Source: Lachnospiraceae bacterium
GTDB taxonomy: Bacteria; Bacillota; Clostridia; Lachnospirales; Lachnospiraceae
DNA length: 64,000 nt
Reading direction: 5' to 3'
NCBI GenBank assembly: GCA_024696005.1
Contig: JAILHF010000051.1
Location: 372,001 to 436,000, forward strand
A program made the translations under genes and the position numbers. This document shows, in pieces, positions 3,745-62,627 of the stretch. Below the pieces are notes generated by a model. That model saw only the letters and a list, made by a program, of their open reading frames with translations, had not been told where the DNA came from and searched no databases. Within the stretch, counting starts at the first letter, position 1, and every line of letters begins with the position of its first letter.

Positions 3745-5643
3745 TCAGGGTGTGCCCCCGAGCAAAGGATTCGCATTCACCTGGGACGGTCCGCCGAGAA
3801 CAGGATTTCCTCCGGGTACCCCCGGTGCGGAAGAATAAGGCACAGCTGCAACTCCGGGAGGCATGCCCGGTGCTGCCGCAAATGCGGGCATCCCGGCTGC
3901 CGGTGTTGCCGGCCCGCCAAAGATCGGCGATGCGGACTGCGCATTTCCCAGATAAGAGGAAAGGCCGCTCGGTCCCACTGCCTGCTGGCTGGCATATGCG
4001 GGCGCATTGCCGCGCGCAGGGCCGTTGCCTGAAGCCGCGAATGCAGCCTGCTGCATGGCCTGGATCTGTTCCGTCGTGACACGCCCGAAGGAACCTCTTT
4101 CGGGAGTGATATAGTTGTCAAAAGATATCTCGCCGTGAAGGCCGCCGGCCGGAGCCTGCGTGCCGTTTTTGATCGCTCTCTCGGCAGCACGGAGACTTGC
4201 CGATTCAAAGATCGATGCTTCCGCCTTTTTCTTCTCTTCCTCTGCGCGCATCTTTTCCAGGATGCCGGGTTCGCTCATCATGCCGGACAAAGCACCGCCT
4301 CCCTGGCCGCCGCTGTTTAAGGATGCCGATTCGAAAATGCCGCCTTCCACGGGTGCGGAAGTCTGCTCCGTATTGGTAACATTGGTAACGCTGACAGACT
4401 GTCCCGGCATCGAAGACGGTACCGCACGTGCGGCGGCATAGCCTCCCGCCTGGTAAGGTGCCGATCCGTAAAGAGCAGCCGGCGAAGATGTCGGTGCCGC
4501 ATACGGTGCTGCGGGTGCAGCGGGCTGCGCATATAACAAAGCCTCAGGCGGAACGTTTCCGCTCGGTGCCACTCCATACGCTGCGGGTGCGGCAGGTGCT
4601 GCGGGTGCAGCGGGCTGCGCATATAACAAAGCCTCAGGCGGAACGTTTCCGCTCGGTGCCACTCCGTACGCTGCGGGTGCGGCAGGTGCTGCGGGTGCAG
4701 CAGGCTGCGCATATAACAGTGTCTCGGGCGGAATGTTTCCGCTCGGTGCCACTCCGTACGCTGCGGGTGCTGCCGGTGCAGCAGGCTGCGCATATAACAG
4801 TGCCTCGGGCGGAACATCACCGCTCGGTGCCACTCCGTACGCTGCGGGTGCTGCCGGTGCTGCCGGTGCAACAGGCTGCGCATATAACAGTGCCTCGGGC
4901 GGAACATCACCGCTCGGTGCCACTCCGTATGCTGCCGGCGCAGCAGGAGCTTCCGCTCCCAGACTCGGGATCGGCGGAGGCGTCAGATAAGACTCTGCCG
5001 GTGCTGCCGGTGCAACAGGAGCCGCAGGCGCTGCAGGTGCAACAGGTGCTGCAGGAGCTGCGGGTGCTGCTTCGGGTGCCAGCGAAGCCAGATTGCTTCC
5101 GCTGTGCGTTTCTTTATAGTTGGGCTGATATGCCGGAGCGGACGCTGCCACACGCGGCTTGTAAGCAGGACGGAACGGAGAAACGGGTGCCGGCGAGAAC
5201 AGAGCTGCCGGATCAACGGACGATACACCTGCTTCCACCTGTGTGGAAGGGTTCTCGCTTTCGTAAGCATAGGGCTCCGGAGCCGGTGTATAGGAAACGT
5301 TCGGCATGTCCGGAACGACAGGCGCATTCGGCGCTGCAGGCAGCGGATACGCTTCGGGTGCGGGTGCCGGTGCAGGCGCTTCCGCAACCGGTTCGGGCGC
5401 AGGTGCCGCTGCAGGGGCCGGCGCAGGCGCGGGTGCCGCCGACTTCAGGAAATCCAGCTCCGCCACACCGTGGGTATCGCCGGAACGGTTGTATACACTG
5501 CCGAAGGAGATCGAGCTGTTCACCTGACCGCCCTTTTTCTTGAGCTCTCTCATGTATTTTTTGAGATTGAATTTACAGCCCGGGCAAAGCTTTGAACTGT
5601 CGTCTACAAAGCGGTTGCACTGCGGGCAGGTGATATTGGCCAT
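3745..5643 (-). CDS. Zinc-ribbon protein with Pro/Ala tandem repeats
   Basis: 632 residues. The N-terminus carries a zinc ribbon, CPQC at residues 6-9 and CPGC at 20-23, followed by a basic segment (KKYMRELKKKGG). The rest is a long, low-complexity Pro/Ala/Tyr-rich region containing five near-identical copies of a module around AAYGVAPSG, PPE and LLYAQP, then a Gln/Ala/Gly-rich C-terminus. No signal peptide or membrane span is visible, so it is probably cytoplasmic. Such an architecture suits a flexible scaffold anchored by its zinc ribbon, but that is inference. The start has an AGGAGG site. It heads the operon with the unknown gene and ispF. Confidence 0.85.
   Translation of the reverse strand: MANITCPQCNRFVDDSSKLCPGCKFNLKKYMRELKKKGGQVNSSISFGSVYNRSGDTHGVAELDFLKSAAPAPAPAPAAAPAPEPVAEAPAPAPAPEAYPLPAAPNAPVVPDMPNVSYTPAPEPYAYESENPSTQVEAGVSSVDPAALFSPAPVSPFRPAYKPRVAASAPAYQPNYKETHSGSNLASLAPEAAPAAPAAPVAPAAPAAPVAPAAPAESYLTPPPIPSLGAEAPAAPAAYGVAPSGDVPPEALLYAQPVAPAAPAAPAAYGVAPSGDVPPEALLYAQPAAPAAPAAYGVAPSGNIPPETLLYAQPAAPAAPAAPAAYGVAPSGNVPPEALLYAQPAAPAAPAAPAAYGVAPSGNVPPEALLYAQPAAPAAPYAAPTSSPAALYGSAPYQAGGYAAARAVPSSMPGQSVSVTNVTNTEQTSAPVEGGIFESASLNSGGQGGGALSGMMSEPGILEKMRAEEEKKKAEASIFESASLRAAERAIKNGTQAPAGGLHGEISFDNYITPERGSFGRVTTEQIQAMQQAAFAASGNGPARGNAPAYASQQAVGPSGLSSYLGNAQSASPIFGGPATPAAGMPAFAAAPGMPPGVAAVPYSSAPGVPGGNPVLGGPSQVNANPLLGGTP
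4525..4943. repeat. Five tandem coding repeats, period 90/90/81/90 bases
   Basis: The motif CTGCGCATATAAC starts at 4525, 4615, 4705, 4786 and 4876. Period differences are a multiple of 9 bases, meaning gain or loss of one Pro-Ala-Ala tripeptide. The reading frame stays open through all copies, so the repeats evolve as protein. Sequence identity between copies is very high, which suggests recent slippage or recombination. Confidence 0.92.
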
Positions 5644-34441: not shown

Positions 34442-34460
34442 TCCCTTCTCCCGCAGACTC

Positions 34461-34602
34461 AACTGCCATTCGCAGCCCTCCGGGCTTCAAATGGCAGCGG
34501 GTTTTGCCAACAGAATCGCCTTCGGCGATGGGCAAAACCCAATCCGTATATACAAGTCGGGCCGTAACTGCGCAGCAGGTGCGCAGTTCGGCCGTGGACA
34601 GT
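34461..34602. repeat. Three-hairpin dispersed repeat, copy 1
   Basis: Fills the rbfA-nrnA gap. Hairpin A: 34463-34470 with 34490-34497, inner stem 34474-34478/34482-34486. Hairpin B: 34499-34508 with 34531-34540, inner stem 34515-34520/34524-34529. Hairpin C: 34560-34574 with 34580-34593. A second copy at 40395-40538 has the same order, sizes and loops with compensating changes. No ribosome binding site or terminator T run is present. Confidence 0.85.
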
Positions 34603-34608
34603 AACGAC

Positions 34609-35010
34609 TCAGTCTTCCTCCGTATCATCCCCGCCGCGTGCCGCGATCGTCTTTTCGTCGGCATCACGCACCTGATCGATCAGTTGCGACATGTGATTTC
34701 CGTAAGCAATGGAATGGTCCGGCAAAAAGATCAGCTCGGGCGTGTTCCTGAGATTCAGTTCGTGCGCAAGCTGTCTTCTGAGATATCCCTCGGCGCTCTT
34801 TAAGCCTTCCAGTCCTTCCCGCATGGCCTCTTCATCACCGAGCATGCTAACCCATACCTTGCAGCTCTTCAGATCCGGCGCCACCTCGGCATCGGTGACC
34901 GATGTGAACTCCGGCACGCGCGGATCCTTGACTTCGCTGCGGATCAGCTCTGCGAGGACTTTGACGACTTCGGAATTGATCCTTGTATTTTTAACACTTC
35001 CCTTTCGCAT
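34609..35010 (-). CDS. rbfA: Ribosome-binding factor A
   Basis: 133 residues, KH-like fold, binds the 30S subunit during late 16S rRNA maturation. Conserved features: RINSEVVKVLAELIRSEVKDPRV at the start, VTDAEVAPDLKSCKVWVS, and LRRQLAHELNLRNTPELIFLPDHS. The acidic tail is a short addition. It begins directly after the infB stop codon and ends 6 bases before hairpin repeat copy 1. Confidence 0.95.
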   Translation of the reverse strand: MRKGSVKNTRINSEVVKVLAELIRSEVKDPRVPEFTSVTDAEVAPDLKSCKVWVSMLGDEEAMREGLEGLKSAEGYLRRQLAHELNLRNTPELIFLPDHSIAYGNHMSQLIDQVRDADEKTIAARGGDDTEED

Positions 35011-39786: not shown

Positions 39787-40251
39787 TCAGAAATCAACCG
39801 CAAGCTTGACCACGGCGATCTTTGAACGCTCAAAGCTCCGTTCCTCTTCCCCGATCAGAAGATTCACGCTGTTTTTGTCAAAAGACTTCAGCTCGCCCCG
39901 GAATTCCTTTTCTCCGTCCAGGGCTTCAAAAAGCTTCACTTCCACTTCCTGCCCCAGACTGTTCTCGAAATGTCTGTCCTTCTTGAGCTGCCTTCCCAGT
40001 CCCGGGCTGCTCACTTCCAGGATGTAAGCCTCGGGGATCGGATCCGTTTCATCAAGCTTTTCCGACAGCGCCCGGCTCACGTTCTCGCAGTCCTGGATAT
40101 TGACGCCGCCGTCCTTGTCGATGTAGGCCCGGAGAAAATAATCGCTTCCTTCCTTCACATATTCCACATCATAGATCCGGACGCCGTTCGCCTCGGCGAT
40201 CGGCTTCAAAAGCTCTTCCGTCAGCTGTTCCGTGTCTTTCCTGCTCGGCAT
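39787..40251 (-). CDS. rimP: Ribosome maturation factor RimP
   Basis: 154 residues, needed for 30S maturation. YDVEYVKEGSDYFLRAYIDKDGGVNIQDCENVSRALSEKLDE and YILEVSSPGLGRQL are family hallmarks. GGAG lies 8 bases before ATG. First gene of the cluster, with its own promoter and a leader that can form a 12-bp hairpin. A 97-base gap with no evident feature separates it from nusA. Confidence 0.95.
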   Translation of the reverse strand: MPSRKDTEQLTEELLKPIAEANGVRIYDVEYVKEGSDYFLRAYIDKDGGVNIQDCENVSRALSEKLDETDPIPEAYILEVSSPGLGRQLKKDRHFENSLGQEVEVKLFEALDGEKEFRGELKSFDKNSVNLLIGEEERSFERSKIAVVKLAVDF

Positions 40252-40285: not shown

Positions 40286-40312
40286 TAAGAGTAGGTGCAG
40301 CACCTACTCTTA
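40286..40312 (-). promoter_or_regulatory. Perfect leader hairpin before rimP
   Basis: TAAGAGTAGGTG pairs with its exact complement 3 bases later, a 12-bp stem with a triloop near the 5' end of the predicted rimP transcript and 35 bases before the start. No T run follows, so it is not an intrinsic terminator; it could protect the 5' end or bind a protein. Confidence 0.7.
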
Positions 40313-40357: not shown

Positions 40358-40394
40358 GCGTTTTTCATAAATTATGTGGTCTGCAAGCCGGCGG

Positions 40395-40538
40395 TTGTTA
40401 CCATTCACAGCCCTTTGGGCTGTAAATGGTAACGGGTTTCGCCAATAAAATTGCCTTCGGCAATGGGCGAAACCCATCGCCGGGTATACAGCCTGGGCCG
40501 TAACTGCGCAGCAAGTGCGCAGTTCGGCTGTGAACAGT
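40395..40538. repeat. Three-hairpin dispersed repeat, copy 2
   Basis: Hairpin A: 40397-40405 with 40425-40433, inner stem 40407-40413/40417-40423. Hairpin B: 40434-40443 with 40466-40475, inner stem 40450-40455/40459-40464. Hairpin C: 40496-40510 with 40516-40529. It starts 10 bases after the stop codon of the TPR gene and ends before the rimP promoter. Same orientation and order as copy 1. Confidence 0.85.
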
Positions 40539-40548
40539 ATCCGGCAGT

Positions 40549-43020
40549 TCAACCTTCCAGCCTCTTCTCTGCGTCCTCCAGATCCTTATATCCGAGAAGC
40601 CTGGCCGTATTGCCCATGATCTCGGCGGCCAGGTTGCGGCCGGCCTGGGCAAGGCCCGCGATGAAGCGGCCGTAGAGGATCAGCGTTCCATCGGAATAGG
40701 TGCTGATCTCGCCGCGCAGATAGGTTTCGTATGAAGTATTGTATGCCGTGTCTTCGCTTGTATGGATGCTTCTGGCACTGTCCGCCATCTTCGGGTATTT
40801 CTTTGCGAATTCCTCCATCCAGCCGATCTGGATCGCGATGATCTCTTCCTGGATGCGGAGGCGATCCTCATCGAGCTTCGGGAAGTAAGGCTCCAGCTCC
40901 TTGTAGCGTTCCGGCGCGGTGCTTTCCATCATGCGGCCGTATTTTTCGGTGATCAGATTGCGGCCGTGTGCCTTCGCATCGCTCAGGTCGCTGAAAAAGC
41001 TGACCAGCAGTTCTTCCGGCCAGGTCATGTACTGGCTCTTTCGCATGACGGAAAAGGTCTCCCAGTTGTCCTGACAGTCCGCCCTTCCGCCTTCGTTTTC
41101 CGTCCGGTCAAACTGTTCCCATTCCAGGGCGACCACAGCCTCGATCAGGCGCGTCTTTTCATCGGCACCGGCTGCATCCTTTTTTATATCTTCCCTTTTC
41201 AGGACTTCGGGCTTCCATTCCCGGATCTCGGGCTGCTTACCGCCTTTCGCCTTCCGCTTTACAAGCCCTGCGATCTCGGCGATATAGCGGTCCGCAAAGG
41301 GTTCGTTTTTGTCGTAATCGGCGATCATTCCCTGCTGTACCATCTGATCCAGGATCAGCGCCGAAGCGATGTCAAAGCTCAGCGCCTTGTTGTCGGTCCC
41401 GTTCTCGAGGACCACATCCTTCCCCGAGGGCATGTCCGCGATCGCTCTCGCGATGTCGGAAAGCTCGGGCAGGACGGAAAGCTCGGCCGTTCCCCTGCAG
41501 AGCAGCTTCAGATAAGGCGGAAAACGCCGGTTCAGATAAAAAGCGATCTGCAGCATGCATTGCACGGCCCTGGCTTCGTAAAGCCCGGCCGTCACAAAGT
41601 CGCCGCGTTTCAGGGAACGCAGGTAATTGTATTGCCCTGCCTGCGAGAACAGATGCGTCAGGTTCGCAAGCTTCTTACGCCGGAAGCCTTCTGGCATCTC
41701 CTCGCGGAAATAGCGGCGCAGCTTGGTGATCGTTCCTTCCCCGTCATGGAAGATCCCGCCGTTTACGGCCGCGGCCACACCGGCAAGGGTCTCGTCATCC
41801 ATGTCGTTCAACAGGGCTTCGATCCCTTTCGCGTAATAACGCATCGTGATCTGCGGGATGGTCGTGAGGCGCTCGAAGAACTCGTCGATCTCCATCACAC
41901 CCTGCCGTCCCAGCTTTACGTCGGGTTCGCCGCCGAAAGCGCTCTGGTATGCATCCCTGTAAAGCGCTTCCAGCTTTTTGCGGTATTTCTCCGCATGGAC
42001 TGCGGAAAGCCAGACACAGCAGCCCGGCGCATAATCGTGATCCCTGGAATATTCGTCATCAAAACCGAAATGCTCGCTGCCTTCTCCGGCATAGCCCACG
42101 GCAATGTAAGAAAGGGCATCCGGGATTTCCCGTTCGATGCGCGGAAGAAGGTATTCTTCGTAGAAATAGCCGCTCCGCGAGAATGCGTCGTTCTCATCGG
42201 GTGCGATCTCCCGCTGTTCTCCCGCGCAGCGCATGGAGAGCTCGTAGTTTTCCTTCACACGCCGGTAATTCTCACTGGCTCCGGTCCCGGCATAGAGCTG
42301 CTCCATTGCCTTGCGGAAGCAGGCTGCCGCGCCGAGATAATCTTCTTTCTGGAAATACAGGGTACCCAGGGCGGAAAGCGCCGCGCTGTAATGAAAGTCG
42401 GTGCCGCCGTCCCGTTCAAAGATATCGATGGCATCGCGCAGGCACTGCTCCGCCTCTTCGCGCCCCTCGGGGGATGCGTAGATCAGGGCAGCCGCCAGAT
42501 TGGCCTTGGTGCTGGCCAGTTCGATCTCGTGCTCGGGATGGGAAGTGTTCAGGATGGCGGCCGCGCGCTGGAAATCTTCGACGGCACGCTCCCATTCTTT
42601 GAGTTCCTGGTATAAAAGACCGCGGTTGTTGTAGAGTCCCGCGAAAAGAAAATCGTTCTTCGGGAGCATGGCATTGTAGAGCTCCTCGCAGATCGCATAG
42701 CGTTTCTCCGATTCCTCCGGCATGCCGAAGCCCCGGTAAGCGTTTGCCAGATTCAGCATCGTCGTGGCATACTCGATGCGCCCTTCAAAATCGAGCTCAT
42801 GCATCAGGTTCTCGAGTTCCCTGGCATAGCGCACGCCCTCTTCCTTGAAAGCAGCGTCGCGGCAAAAACCGATCACCTCGTTTAAGAGAATGATCTCGGC
42901 CGCCACATCCCGCTCCTCCCTGGCGATGTCGATCTTCTGCATCAGCCAGGACAAAATCTCTCTGGGCTCCCTGGCCCCGAACATCGCATCATATTCTTCC
43001 AGGATCCCGTCGATATTCAT
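40549..43020 (-). CDS. TPR - DUF4037-like nucleotidyltransferase - DUF4125-like fusion protein
   Basis: 823 residues. Residues 20-270 are TPR-like helical pairs (LANAYRGFGMPEESEKRY, YNNRGLLYQELKEWERAVEDF, LGTLYFQKEDYLGAAACFRKAM). Residues 283-500 resemble DUF4037: GS at 314-315 and DHD at 327-329 in SRDHDYAP match the GS-x11-DxD signature of polymerase-beta-type nucleotidyltransferases. The last 200 residues resemble DUF4125 (NTSYETYLRGEISTYSDGTL). No signal peptide. Domain names are from memory. It overlaps rseP by 4 bases, so it is translated with it. The substrate is unknown; peers of this fold modify tRNA, proteins or small molecules. Confidence 0.8.
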   Translation of the reverse strand: MNIDGILEEYDAMFGAREPREILSWLMQKIDIAREERDVAAEIILLNEVIGFCRDAAFKEEGVRYARELENLMHELDFEGRIEYATTMLNLANAYRGFGMPEESEKRYAICEELYNAMLPKNDFLFAGLYNNRGLLYQELKEWERAVEDFQRAAAILNTSHPEHEIELASTKANLAAALIYASPEGREEAEQCLRDAIDIFERDGGTDFHYSAALSALGTLYFQKEDYLGAAACFRKAMEQLYAGTGASENYRRVKENYELSMRCAGEQREIAPDENDAFSRSGYFYEEYLLPRIEREIPDALSYIAVGYAGEGSEHFGFDDEYSRDHDYAPGCCVWLSAVHAEKYRKKLEALYRDAYQSAFGGEPDVKLGRQGVMEIDEFFERLTTIPQITMRYYAKGIEALLNDMDDETLAGVAAAVNGGIFHDGEGTITKLRRYFREEMPEGFRRKKLANLTHLFSQAGQYNYLRSLKRGDFVTAGLYEARAVQCMLQIAFYLNRRFPPYLKLLCRGTAELSVLPELSDIARAIADMPSGKDVVLENGTDNKALSFDIASALILDQMVQQGMIADYDKNEPFADRYIAEIAGLVKRKAKGGKQPEIREWKPEVLKREDIKKDAAGADEKTRLIEAVVALEWEQFDRTENEGGRADCQDNWETFSVMRKSQYMTWPEELLVSFFSDLSDAKAHGRNLITEKYGRMMESTAPERYKELEPYFPKLDEDRLRIQEEIIAIQIGWMEEFAKKYPKMADSARSIHTSEDTAYNTSYETYLRGEISTYSDGTLILYGRFIAGLAQAGRNLAAEIMGNTARLLGYKDLEDAEKRLEG

Positions 43021-61064: not shown

Positions 61065-62627
61065 TCAATACAACGGCAGCGCTTCGCCTGTGGAGATCCG
61101 GGCGGCTCCGGCGCAGGGATCGGTCCCTTTCTCCAGAAAGCGGTAGGTGATGGCATCCTCGAGCAGCGAGAAAGAGATCACCCCGTGCACGGAATAAAAG
61201 ATCCGCTCCTCGCTTTCCGGATCGTAACAGACGATCCCCCGGTCCACGCTTCGGTCGATGTACCAGATCTTTCCGTCCTGCGGAACGGGAACGGAATAAA
61301 AGCCGCGCAGATGGACAAAATCCCCTCCGAGCTGTTCCGCGGAAAGAGTCACATCCGATGCCGCGTCCAGCATGCCGTAACCTTCATCAAAGCTTGCATA
61401 ATAAAGCTTCCCGTCATAATAGGCGATCCCGCTGTAGTCCCCGTATTCCGTGAGGTGCATGCGTTCCCCGCCGTCCACGTTCATCCGGCAGATCACGGTA
61501 TTTTCGCGCTTTGCCCTTTCCGGATCGAGCGCCACATAATAGATGTTATTCCCGGAAACGCAGAACGAATTGCAGTCTTCTTCGGAAAGGCTGATCTCGC
61601 GTCTGTCCGCGACATGGCATTTGCAGAGTTTGCCGTCCGCGCTGCGGATATAGTAAAGCCAGTCGTTGACCATCTGCAGGGCTCCCACTTTTCCCTTTGT
61701 CAGAACGCGGGGTTCCGTCCCGTCCGTTGTGATACTGCAGATCCCCTCATCCGTCGCGAAATAGATCCGCCCGTCCGACAGGCTTAAAAGATCCGCTGCC
61801 TGCTCACAGATCTGCTCGCGGGCATGCTCTCCGCCCTTTTCCACACGCCAGATCGTATTGCCCCTGGTCGGATCTGCCAGATAGTAGTACTTCTTATCCT
61901 CCACGATGCCGGAGCCGGTCGCGTACAGGGCATGGCTGTTACCGTAGCGGAAGCTCTCCGCCATCGAACTGTTCCCGCCGGTACCTTCCGCATAGGACGG
62001 GATCGAAGGAAGCGGCACTTCCTCCTTCTGATGGCTCTCATACCAGACTGCGCCCCCGTACTTTTCCTGCACCGTGACCAGATTGCCGAGAACATAAAGG
62101 CTGGCGAGGATCACGGCCACCGCGGCAAGGCCCGCGACGATGCCCAGGATATCCCAGAAACTGAACGGATTTTCCTTCTTTTTCTTTTTTCCGTCGCCGT
62201 CTCCCCCGGCCCCCGTGCTGTCCGCAGGGGCTTCCGTCTGCTCCCCGGGTGCGGCCGGCTCTTCCGTTGAAGATGCCTCTTCCGGTGCAGCCTCCCCTTC
62301 CGGCGCGTTTTCCTCTTCGGATGCAGCCGGTTCTTCAGAAAGGGCAGCTGTTTCCTCCGGTGCATTCTCCCCTTCCGGTGCGGCTGCTTCTTCCGGCACG
62401 ACCGATCCTTCCGCTGTCGCTTCTTCTTCGGAGACAACAGTCTCCTCCGGTGCGGCTTCCTCTTCCGGCACTGTTTCCCCTTCGGGCACAGTTTCCCCTT
62501 CGTCCACGCCTTTTTCTTCGGCATGCACGGTCTCCTCAGCCACACTCATTTCTTCGGACTGTGTATTTTCTCCGGCCGGCAGATCTTCTCCGGCCGTTTC
62601 TTTTTCTTCCGTATTCTTATCTTCCAT
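61065..62627 (-). CDS. Membrane-anchored acidic protein with DUF5050-like beta-propeller
   Basis: 520 residues. Residues 1-145 are Glu/Ala/Pro-rich with imperfect repeats of the type VPEEEAAPEE, followed by KKKKKE and one membrane helix at about 158-182. The outer part (from about 200) looks like a beta-propeller of the DUF5050 type (YYLADPTRGNTIWRV, GRIYFATDEGICSI, NDWLYYIRSADGKL, GNNIYYVALDPER, DGKLYYASFD). ATG 62625-62627 has AGGAGAAGAG upstream. It has its own promoter and is coupled to the TPR-like gene. The function is unknown. Confidence 0.78.
   Translation of the reverse strand: MEDKNTEEKETAGEDLPAGENTQSEEMSVAEETVHAEEKGVDEGETVPEGETVPEEEAAPEETVVSEEEATAEGSVVPEEAAAPEGENAPEETAALSEEPAASEEENAPEGEAAPEEASSTEEPAAPGEQTEAPADSTGAGGDGDGKKKKKENPFSFWDILGIVAGLAAVAVILASLYVLGNLVTVQEKYGGAVWYESHQKEEVPLPSIPSYAEGTGGNSSMAESFRYGNSHALYATGSGIVEDKKYYYLADPTRGNTIWRVEKGGEHAREQICEQAADLLSLSDGRIYFATDEGICSITTDGTEPRVLTKGKVGALQMVNDWLYYIRSADGKLCKCHVADRREISLSEEDCNSFCVSGNNIYYVALDPERAKRENTVICRMNVDGGERMHLTEYGDYSGIAYYDGKLYYASFDEGYGMLDAASDVTLSAEQLGGDFVHLRGFYSVPVPQDGKIWYIDRSVDRGIVCYDPESEERIFYSVHGVISFSLLEDAITYRFLEKGTDPCAGAARISTGEALPLY

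What the first reader, a model, noticed from the sequence alone, without database searches (positions are those of the whole stretch)
34461..34602. Dispersed three-hairpin element with compensating changes (compare 40395-40538)
Two copies, 6 kb apart and in the same orientation, each fold into three consecutive hairpins of the same size and order. Four base pairs differ between copies with both partners changed: two in stem A (CTGCCATT/AATGGCAG against TTACCATT/AATGGTAA), one in the outer stem B (T-A to C-G) and one in the inner stem B (C-G to T-A). In stem C a G-C becomes G-U. The loops (triloops, and GCAGG/GCAAG) also stay the same size. This is what selection on RNA or DNA structure produces. 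I do not recognise the family; it could be a REP-like element, a small RNA or an mRNA 3'-end structure.
Basis: partly seen in the sequence, partly recalled or inferred. Interest (0 to 1): 0.82.

Follow-up and report, generated by a model that had tools for sequence, protein, structure and literature searches.

The report
Jumping DNA repeat with three hairpins
The two matching three-hairpin sequences are copies of a short mobile DNA element of gut bacteria that duplicates 8 bases of its target when it inserts and shares its end sequences with a larger transposon, so they look like jumping DNA rather than a new RNA gene, although their hairpins keep pairing as the sequence changes.

Summary
In detail: both copies exist, fold as described and differ by four double-changed base pairs. 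They are two old members of a ~145-bp non-autonomous mobile element (MITE) on the minus strand, at 34462-34605 and 40397-40541. A stem-C covariance model finds 45 matches in this genome (E ≤ 0.0135) and, at E ≤ 0.1, matches in 12 of 35 genomes of the genus and in none of 25 others.

The ends are inverted repeats. Of 64 copies with both ends recognised, 28 have a perfect 8-bp target duplication and 42 at least 6 of 8; shuffled pairings reach 8/8 in 0.02%. At the rbfA-nrnA junction holding copy 1, 29 of 29 relatives examined have no room for the element. Nearly the same terminal repeat bounds a 2,323-bp insertion sequence in a relative, with a perfect 8-bp duplication and an IS66-family transposase. 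That transposase was not found in this genome.

The fold covaries strongly among 18 diverged copies. No robust strand bias was found, and young copies in this genome show no clear constraint, so a host RNA function is not supported. The fold is more likely maintained in the moving DNA, by selection or by template-switch correction of palindromes. I call it a new MITE family with an unusual conserved fold.

The parts
34462..34605 (-). MITE copy 1 (whole element), between rbfA and nrnA
   Evidence: Full-length covariance model R2, 117.4 bits, model positions 1-147 (the model was built with this copy among 18)
34561..34592 (-). Copy 1, hairpin C (13 pairs, one bulged A, 5-nt loop)
   Evidence: Fold and alignment A5
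34499..34540 (-). Copy 1, hairpin B (outer and inner stem with a one-sided bulge)
   Evidence: Folds; alignment A5
34462..34498 (-). Copy 1, hairpin A, whose outer arm is the right terminal inverted repeat (eroded)
   Evidence: Fold; right TIR scored 7 of 12, below the script's threshold
34606..34611 (-). TGAGTC, left half of the eroded target duplication; contains the rbfA stop codon TGA
   Evidence: Read directly from the sequence
34456..34461 (-). TGAGTC, right half of the eroded target duplication
   Evidence: Read directly from the sequence
40397..40541 (-). MITE copy 2 (whole element), between a TPR-type gene and rimP
   Evidence: R2, 120.2 bits, model 1-147 (the model was built with this copy among 18)
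40497..40528 (-). Copy 2, hairpin C
   Evidence: Fold; A5
40434..40475 (-). Copy 2, hairpin B
   Evidence: Fold; A5
40397..40433 (-). Copy 2, hairpin A with right terminal inverted repeat
   Evidence: Fold; TIR 11 of 12
40542..40549 (-). Left target duplication AACTGCCG
   Evidence: 7 of 8 identical to the right one
40389..40396 (-). Right target duplication AACCGCCG

Best explanation
The two sequences are diverged copies of a ~145-bp miniature inverted-repeat transposable element. SHOWN: terminal inverted repeats, 8-bp target duplications, many dispersed copies, an empty site in relatives, a conserved three-hairpin fold with compensatory changes, and a larger insertion sequence in the same genus with nearly the same terminal repeat, the same target-duplication length and an IS66-family transposase. 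INFERRED: that this type of transposase (IS66 family, ISBst12-like) moved the elements in trans by binding the ~14-bp ends and inserting at 8-bp staggered cuts. INFERRED: that copies outlive the transposase, since none related was found in this genome, and then decay. INFERRED: that the stems stay complementary because the moving lineage keeps them so at DNA level, either because the fold helps mobility or because template switching rewrites one arm from the other, and not because each copy serves the host as an RNA.
For: Copies: 45 matches at E ≤ 0.0135 of 58 listed in the own genome; at E ≤ 0.1, 12 of 60 genomes, all 12 among the 35 of this genus. A young subfamily of 16 copies or part-copies, 96-99% identical to the query copy and 97-100% to their consensus. 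Target duplications: 133 stem-C hits from ten genomes examined, 69 dropped because an end was not recognised or the contig stopped; of the 64 kept, 28 have 8/8, 10 have 7/8, 4 have 6/8; pairing flanks of different copies gives 0.02%, 0.12%, 0.92%; exact repeats of 7 or 9 occur in 2 and 1 copies, so the length is 8. By genome the ≥ 6/8 copies are 18 of 20 in G010, 8 of 12 in G018, 6 of 16 in G030, 7 of 12 here, 3 of 4 elsewhere. Empty site: nrnA starts -11 to +46 nt from the rbfA stop in 29 of 29 relatives examined, +167 here. Partner: G027 IS of 2,323 bp, 15/15 TIR at both ends, gatacttt on both sides; its 582-aa product passes NCBIfam NF033517 (189 vs cut-off 180 bits) and Pfam PF03050 (63 vs 23.1 bits). 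Ends: G010-type MITE and IS left ends agree at 14 of 14 positions in 4 of 5 cases (13 in the fifth) and at 7-8 of the next 12 in 3 of 5. Fold: 24 of 45 pairs double-changed, covariation 0.304 vs 0.138 shuffled and ≤ 0.098 slid.
Against: The partner transposase was found in 5 of 35 genus genomes, in two of them only as remnants (G013, G018), and not in three of the four genomes richest in MITEs (this one, G010, G030). G030 has a short IS66 fragment with a stop codon, and this genome one IS66 gene of another subgroup without these ends. So mobilisation by the partner is inferred from ends and duplication length, not observed. The end match is weaker for this genome's own copies: window copy 2 agrees with the IS ends at 11-13 of 14, the young subfamily at 9-11 of 14. 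Copy 1 has lost a clean 8-bp duplication (only TGAGTC repeats) and failed the script's TIR threshold. 22 of the 64 kept copies show 5 or fewer matches of 8. Draft contigs end inside the element, so counts are approximate.
Confidence: 0.86

Rival explanations
1. The stems covary without any selection on folding: replication template switching between the arms of a palindrome rewrites one arm from the other, producing double changes by mutation alone. This is a rival for the cause of covariation, compatible with the MITE reading.
For: All three stems are near-perfect palindromes, and template switching is reported to create and maintain hairpins (PMC8794818, abstract and opening text). No strand preference is robust in a strand-neutral test, as expected of a DNA process. 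Several neighbouring pairs change together between subfamilies.
Against: Hairpin B keeps a one-sided bulge of about 6-7 nt and a triloop across subfamilies, which palindrome correction would not preserve by itself; the loops of C and A do vary by a base or more. The inner-B swap G-C to C-G leaves neighbouring pairs largely unchanged. In 27 G010/G018 copies the substitutions fall less often than expected in stems B and C (8 of 46 against 40%, p=0.0014), which may be constraint, though 6 of those 8 break a pair.
Confidence: 0.4
2. The element works as an RNA in place, for example as an mRNA 3'-end or processing structure after stop codons, and is kept in the genome for that.
For: 37 of the 64 copies with a gene pointing at the hairpin-C end lie within 20 nt after its stop codon; 47 of 126 copies have a stop within 20 nt of an end, against 18% of intergenic positions in the window. 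The CM-fitted alignment shows G·T 116 vs A·C 32, with 28 sites against 4.
Against: The other control, one random point per intergenic gap, puts 70% within 20 nt of a stop, so no enrichment is shown. Orientation to genes is mixed: 64 left genes pointing to the C end, 58 away. The G·T excess rests on one site in a strand-neutral count (59 vs 23, but 34 vs 21, p=0.10, without it) and is absent for singletons (20:20). Sense and antisense fold equally well (22 vs 16 of 38, p=0.5). Young G000 copies: 6 of 12 substitution types fall in stems and 5 of those 6 break a pair. The 29 relatives examined have no room for the element at the rbfA-nrnA site.
Confidence: 0.08
3. A REP/REPIN-type element moved by a Y1 (RAYT) transposase.
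For: Palindromic units, solo and composite forms, intergenic dispersal. Y1 transposases occur in 14 of 34 genomes searched, including the element-bearing G001, G002, G010, G018 and G020.
Against: No Y1 transposase (PF01797, E ≤ 0.001) in this genome (G030 was not among the 34). 8-bp target duplications and terminal inverted repeats do not fit single-strand Y1 transposition (general knowledge).
Confidence: 0.03

Closest known systems
IS66 family, ISBst12 group (for example ISDge4 of Deinococcus geothermalis)
   Same: IS66 transposase, 8-bp direct repeat; ISDge4 ends GTGACTACTCAGCA / GTAACTGCTCAGCA (passages of PMC12898284) match the young MITE ends at 9-10 of 14 positions.
   Different: The window elements carry no transposase. 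The candidate partner has an extra 105-aa first ORF with no family above cut-off, whereas the ISBst12 group is described as single-ORF. The ten plasmid IS66 transposases listed (of 93 records) are 23-24% identical.
Bacterial MITEs in general (Correia/NEMIS, RUP, ERIC/RU-1, Nezha, MITEAba12)
   Same: ~100-150 bp, terminal inverted repeats, no transposase, many intergenic copies, stem-loop RNA if transcribed (passages of PMC2229807; Nezha is recalled, MITEAba12 from search listings).
   Different: 8-bp duplication rather than the TA motif mentioned for some of these; three separate conserved hairpins with covariation; IS66-type ends. A 2024 review of prokaryotic MITEs (PMC10969869) has no occurrence of the word IS66 in its held text (find).
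REP/BIME/REPIN with RAYT transposases
   Same: Palindromic intergenic repeats; solo and composite forms.
   Different: Target duplications, different transposase class, no RAYT found in this genome.
Rfam structured RNA families
   Same: Conserved covarying structure.
   Different: 0 matches in the window at gathering score; 9 matches in 4 other loci at E ≤ 5, all below gathering scores; the unit is mobile DNA.

Membership tests
MITE | Terminal inverted repeats | tested here: met
   64 of 133 hits have both TIRs at ≥ 8 of 12 and enough flank; copy 2 passes, copy 1 does not (right end 7 of 12)
MITE | Target-site duplication of fixed length | tested here: met
   28 of 64 exact 8 bp, 42 of 64 ≥ 6/8; copy 2 7/8; copy 1 only a 6-bp remnant
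MITE | Short, without transposase gene | tested here: met
   54 of the 64 kept copies measure 137-151 bp (lengths); the window ORFs of 80-99 aa that overlap the copies are not transposase-like by eye, no family search was made on them
MITE | Multiple dispersed copies, present/absent between relatives | tested here: met
   empty site in 29 of 29 relatives examined
MITE | Autonomous partner with the same ends | tested here: met
   2,323-bp IS in G027, ends 14/14 with the G010 type, 12-13/14 with window copy 2; not found in the window's genome
MITE | Mobilisation in trans by that partner | not testable with these tools
   Needs an experiment
IS66 family (the partner IS) | IS66 transposase | tested here: met
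   NF033517 189 bits vs 180; PF03050 63 vs 23.1 bits
IS66 family (the partner IS) | 8-bp target duplication | tested here: met
   gatacttt on both sides in G027
IS66 family (the partner IS) | tnpA/tnpB accessory genes (typical members) or a single tnpC (ISBst12 group) | tested here: inconclusive
   One extra 105-113-aa ORF with no family above cut-off; neither layout fits exactly
REP/RAYT | Y1 (RAYT) transposase in the genome | tested here: not met
   0 matches to PF01797 in G000; present in some element-bearing relatives
REP/RAYT | No target duplication | tested here: not met
   8-bp duplications; that REPs lack them is recalled
Rfam RNA family | Match at gathering score | tested here: not met
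   0 matches in the window

The most novel reading that the evidence does not exclude
A DDE-type (IS66) MITE whose spread requires its conserved three-hairpin fold: the transposition machinery or a host factor recognises the folded strand (cruciform, single strand or transcript), so selection on structure acts on the mobile lineage. The solo 36-38-bp palindromes made of two abutting end repeats, some with perfect 8-bp duplications, would then be among the smallest transposable units.
Probability: 0.22. Interest if true: 0.72.

Novelty: new variant of a known kind. Interest (0 to 1): 0.45.

Why it matters
Covariation in intergenic repeats is often taken as proof of a functional RNA; here the same signal comes from a mobile DNA element, a useful warning for RNA-motif discovery in MAGs. 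It adds a MITE family with IS66-type ends (no such pairing turned up in my searches) and a natural series of subfamilies in which selection on folding could be separated from template-switch correction. One copy sits in a tight operon joint of translation genes (rbfA-nrnA) without interrupting either.

Tried and rejected
Rfam search of the window (0 matches) and a permissive search of four other loci (9 matches, all below gathering scores). REP/RAYT origin, disfavoured. Spread in other collections: no match to the young element in plasmids or phages.

Strand-specific (RNA) selection. The CM-fitted alignment suggested it (G·T 116 vs A·C 32; 28 sites vs 4), but the fit itself favours G·U. A strand-neutral recount of stem C left 59 vs 23, and 34 vs 21 (p=0.10) without one inherited site. 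Singletons were 20:20 and fold energies not different. Not claimed.

Preference for stop codons: one control supports it, the other does not. Not claimed.

A first, longest-ORF gene-context count was discarded because it picked antisense frames; the codon-model count replaced it and is still crude. The first nrnA mapping used a wrong frame and was redone. The first in-situ substitution count used a competing fold and included two outlier copies; one search replaced it. In one search the G010/G018 set treats hairpin A as unpaired, so its p-value is only indicative.

Literature (open-access library only; listings unless said): searches gave no description of this repeat or of an IS66-derived MITE. 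Two papers that hold both words were opened: PMC12888890 (passages) describes a MITE with a 4-bp repeat that truncates a gene at an IS66 remnant, not an IS66-derived one; PMC6807381 (passages) names IS66 only in a reference. Also seen: passages of PMC12898284, PMC8024623 and PMC2229807; abstract, opening text and section list of PMC8794818; a word search without hits in PMC10969869. ISfinder and subscription journals were not available.

Full report
What was checked. Shuffles never fold as well (0 of 200 in each of four folds). The genes around them run on the minus strand. Copy 1 sits between rbfA (34609-35010) and nrnA (start about 34441). Copy 2 sits between a TPR-type gene (40549-43020) and rimP (39787-40251) (gene names are my reading of the translations).

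More copies. A BLASTN search of the own genome found a third copy and pieces of others. A model of stem C from six copies gave 58 matches at E ≤ 10 in the own genome, 45 of them at E ≤ 0.0135, ten of these at contig ends. In 60 genomes at E ≤ 0.1 it matched 12, all among the 35 genomes of this genus; the richest were G030 (56 matches), G010 (47), this genome (45) and G018 (29). An exact pattern for the left end in the collection of 84,980 GTDB species returned 59 stretches, 57 titled Lachnospiraceae (33 from one roe-deer rumen MAG, many others from ruminants), one 'uncultured Clostridia' and one 'uncultured Blautia'. That pattern fits only some subfamilies, and records near the window may be left out.

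Anatomy. Most full copies measure 141-148 bp. They start with GTTACTGTTCAG or GTTACTATTCAC, with variants, and end with its reverse complement. Hairpin C follows the left end, then hairpin B, which has an outer stem, an inner stem with a triloop and a one-sided 6-7-nt bulge. Hairpin A comes last; its outer arm is the right terminal repeat. A young subfamily of 16 copies or part-copies in this genome is 97-100% identical to its consensus.

It is transposed DNA. I examined 133 stem-C hits from ten genomes (40 from G030, 39 from this genome, 30 from G010, 17 from G018, 7 others); these are part of the hits, six contig-edge hits of this genome and the unlisted ones being left out. In 69 an end was not recognised by the script or the contig stopped. 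Of the 64 kept, 28 have perfect 8-bp flanking repeats (16 of these in G010), 10 have 7 of 8, 4 have 6 of 8 and 22 have 5 or fewer; pairing flanks of different copies gives 0.02%, 0.12% and 0.92% for 8, 7 and 6. In this genome 7 of 12 kept copies reach 6 of 8. Window copy 2 has AACTGCCG / AACCGCCG (7 of 8). Window copy 1 failed the script's right-end threshold; by eye a TGAGTC repeat flanks it, and the left one contains the rbfA stop codon. At that junction nrnA begins -11 to +46 nt from the rbfA stop in 29 of 29 relatives examined and +167 here; 33 relatives had an rbfA match, and the four without a fetched locus were not examined. So copy 1 is an insertion into a tight operon joint.

The likely mover. 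Some end-repeat matches in relatives were followed by other sequence. One such end, searched across the genus, matched in G013, G020, G025, G027 and G029. The complete element in G027 is 2,323 bp, has a 15/15 terminal repeat at both ends, gatacttt on both sides, a 105-aa first ORF and a 582-aa transposase. The transposase passes the NCBIfam IS66 model and Pfam DDE_Tnp_IS66. Its relatives (E ≤ 1e-10) occur in 5 of 35 genus genomes: two in G027, one each in G025 and G022, pieces of a deleted copy in G013, and stop-containing remnants in G018. None was found in this genome, G010 or G030; G030 has an unassigned IS66 fragment with a stop. So these MITEs may be relics of a lost mover, or the mover may be missing from the drafts. 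This genome has one other IS66-type gene, without these ends. The G010-type MITE and the IS left ends agree at 14 of 14 positions in 4 of 5 cases (13 in the fifth), and 3 of 5 continue to agree at 7-8 of the next 12; window copy 2 agrees at 11-13 of 14, the young subfamily of this genome at 9-11. The ISBst12-group element ISDge4 has similar ends and an 8-bp repeat (passages of PMC12898284).

The fold covaries. I clustered 56 sequences at 0.88 into 22 representatives, dropped four that were truncated or composite, and aligned 18. Over 45 pairs, 89.7% of cells pair, 24 pairs show double changes, and the covariation score is 0.304 against 0.138 in shuffles and at most 0.098 when partners are slid. 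A model-fitted alignment of 92 matches (90 distinct rows, a few loci overlapping) gives 92.1% and 42 of 46 pairs; it leans to its own structure. So stems with quite different letters keep pairing.

Why it covaries is open. If RNA on one strand were selected, G·T should exceed A·C on that strand. The model-fitted alignment says so (116 vs 32; 28 sites vs 4), but a strand-neutral count of stem C depends on one inherited site (59 vs 23 with it, 34 vs 21 without, p=0.10), singletons are 20:20 and sense folds no better than antisense (22 vs 16 of 38). Young copies in this genome show 6 of 12 substitution types in stems, 5 of them breaking pairs (p=0.38 against the expected share). In 27 G010/G018 copies changes are fewer than expected in stems B and C (8 of 46 against 40%, 6 of the 8 breaking a pair). 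I read this as upkeep in the moving lineage, either by selection for mobility or by template switching between palindrome arms (PMC8794818, abstract), followed by decay in place.

Position. Of 122 copies in four genomes with a called left gene, 64 genes point to the hairpin-C end and 58 away; of the 64, 37 have the stop codon within 20 nt. Counting both ends, 47 of 126 copies have a stop within 20 nt. In the window 18% of 4,057 intergenic positions lie that near a stop, but 70% do when one point is drawn per gap. So a preference for stops is not shown.

Verdict. A new MITE family, with IS66/ISBst12-type ends and an unusually conserved three-hairpin fold, found here in Lachnospiraceae, many of them from ruminants. 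A host RNA function is not supported by the tests made.

Noticed in passing
L298:2285-2320, L269:1501-1536, L107:1479-1516, L098:1501-1538: Solo 36-38-bp near-perfect palindromes made of two abutting end repeats; three have exact 8-bp duplications and one 6 of 8. Either minimal mobile units or internal deletions of full copies. Other apparent solos in the list had no duplication.
   Followed up: partly
L288:1501-1699 and similar end pairs in G010: ~200-bp variant of the element with ~55 bp of extra sequence in the loop of hairpin C (L288 read; other ~200-bp end pairs only listed).
   Followed up: no
L073, L075, L077 (G022, G001, G010): Another palindromic repeat, GTAAGCGCAAT..ATTGCGCTTAC, with GTAAGC-type ends; perhaps a second IS66-type miniature element.
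   Followed up: no
window 40286-40312: Perfect 13-bp-arm palindrome TAAGAGTAGGTGC-A-GCACCTACTCTTA in the presumed leader of rimP, downstream of a promoter-like TTGCAT-N17-TAAACT (read by eye).
   Followed up: no
window 4415-5041 and 62235-62519: Tandem repeats of about 90 nt and 18 nt, perhaps repetitive coding sequence.
   Followed up: no
L317, L297-L299 (left end of the IS66-type elements): The stretch before the first ORF holds its own inverted repeats (CGTGACGAT..ATCGTCACG around a hairpin), and the first ORF (105-113 aa) matches no Pfam or NCBIfam family above cut-off.
   Followed up: no
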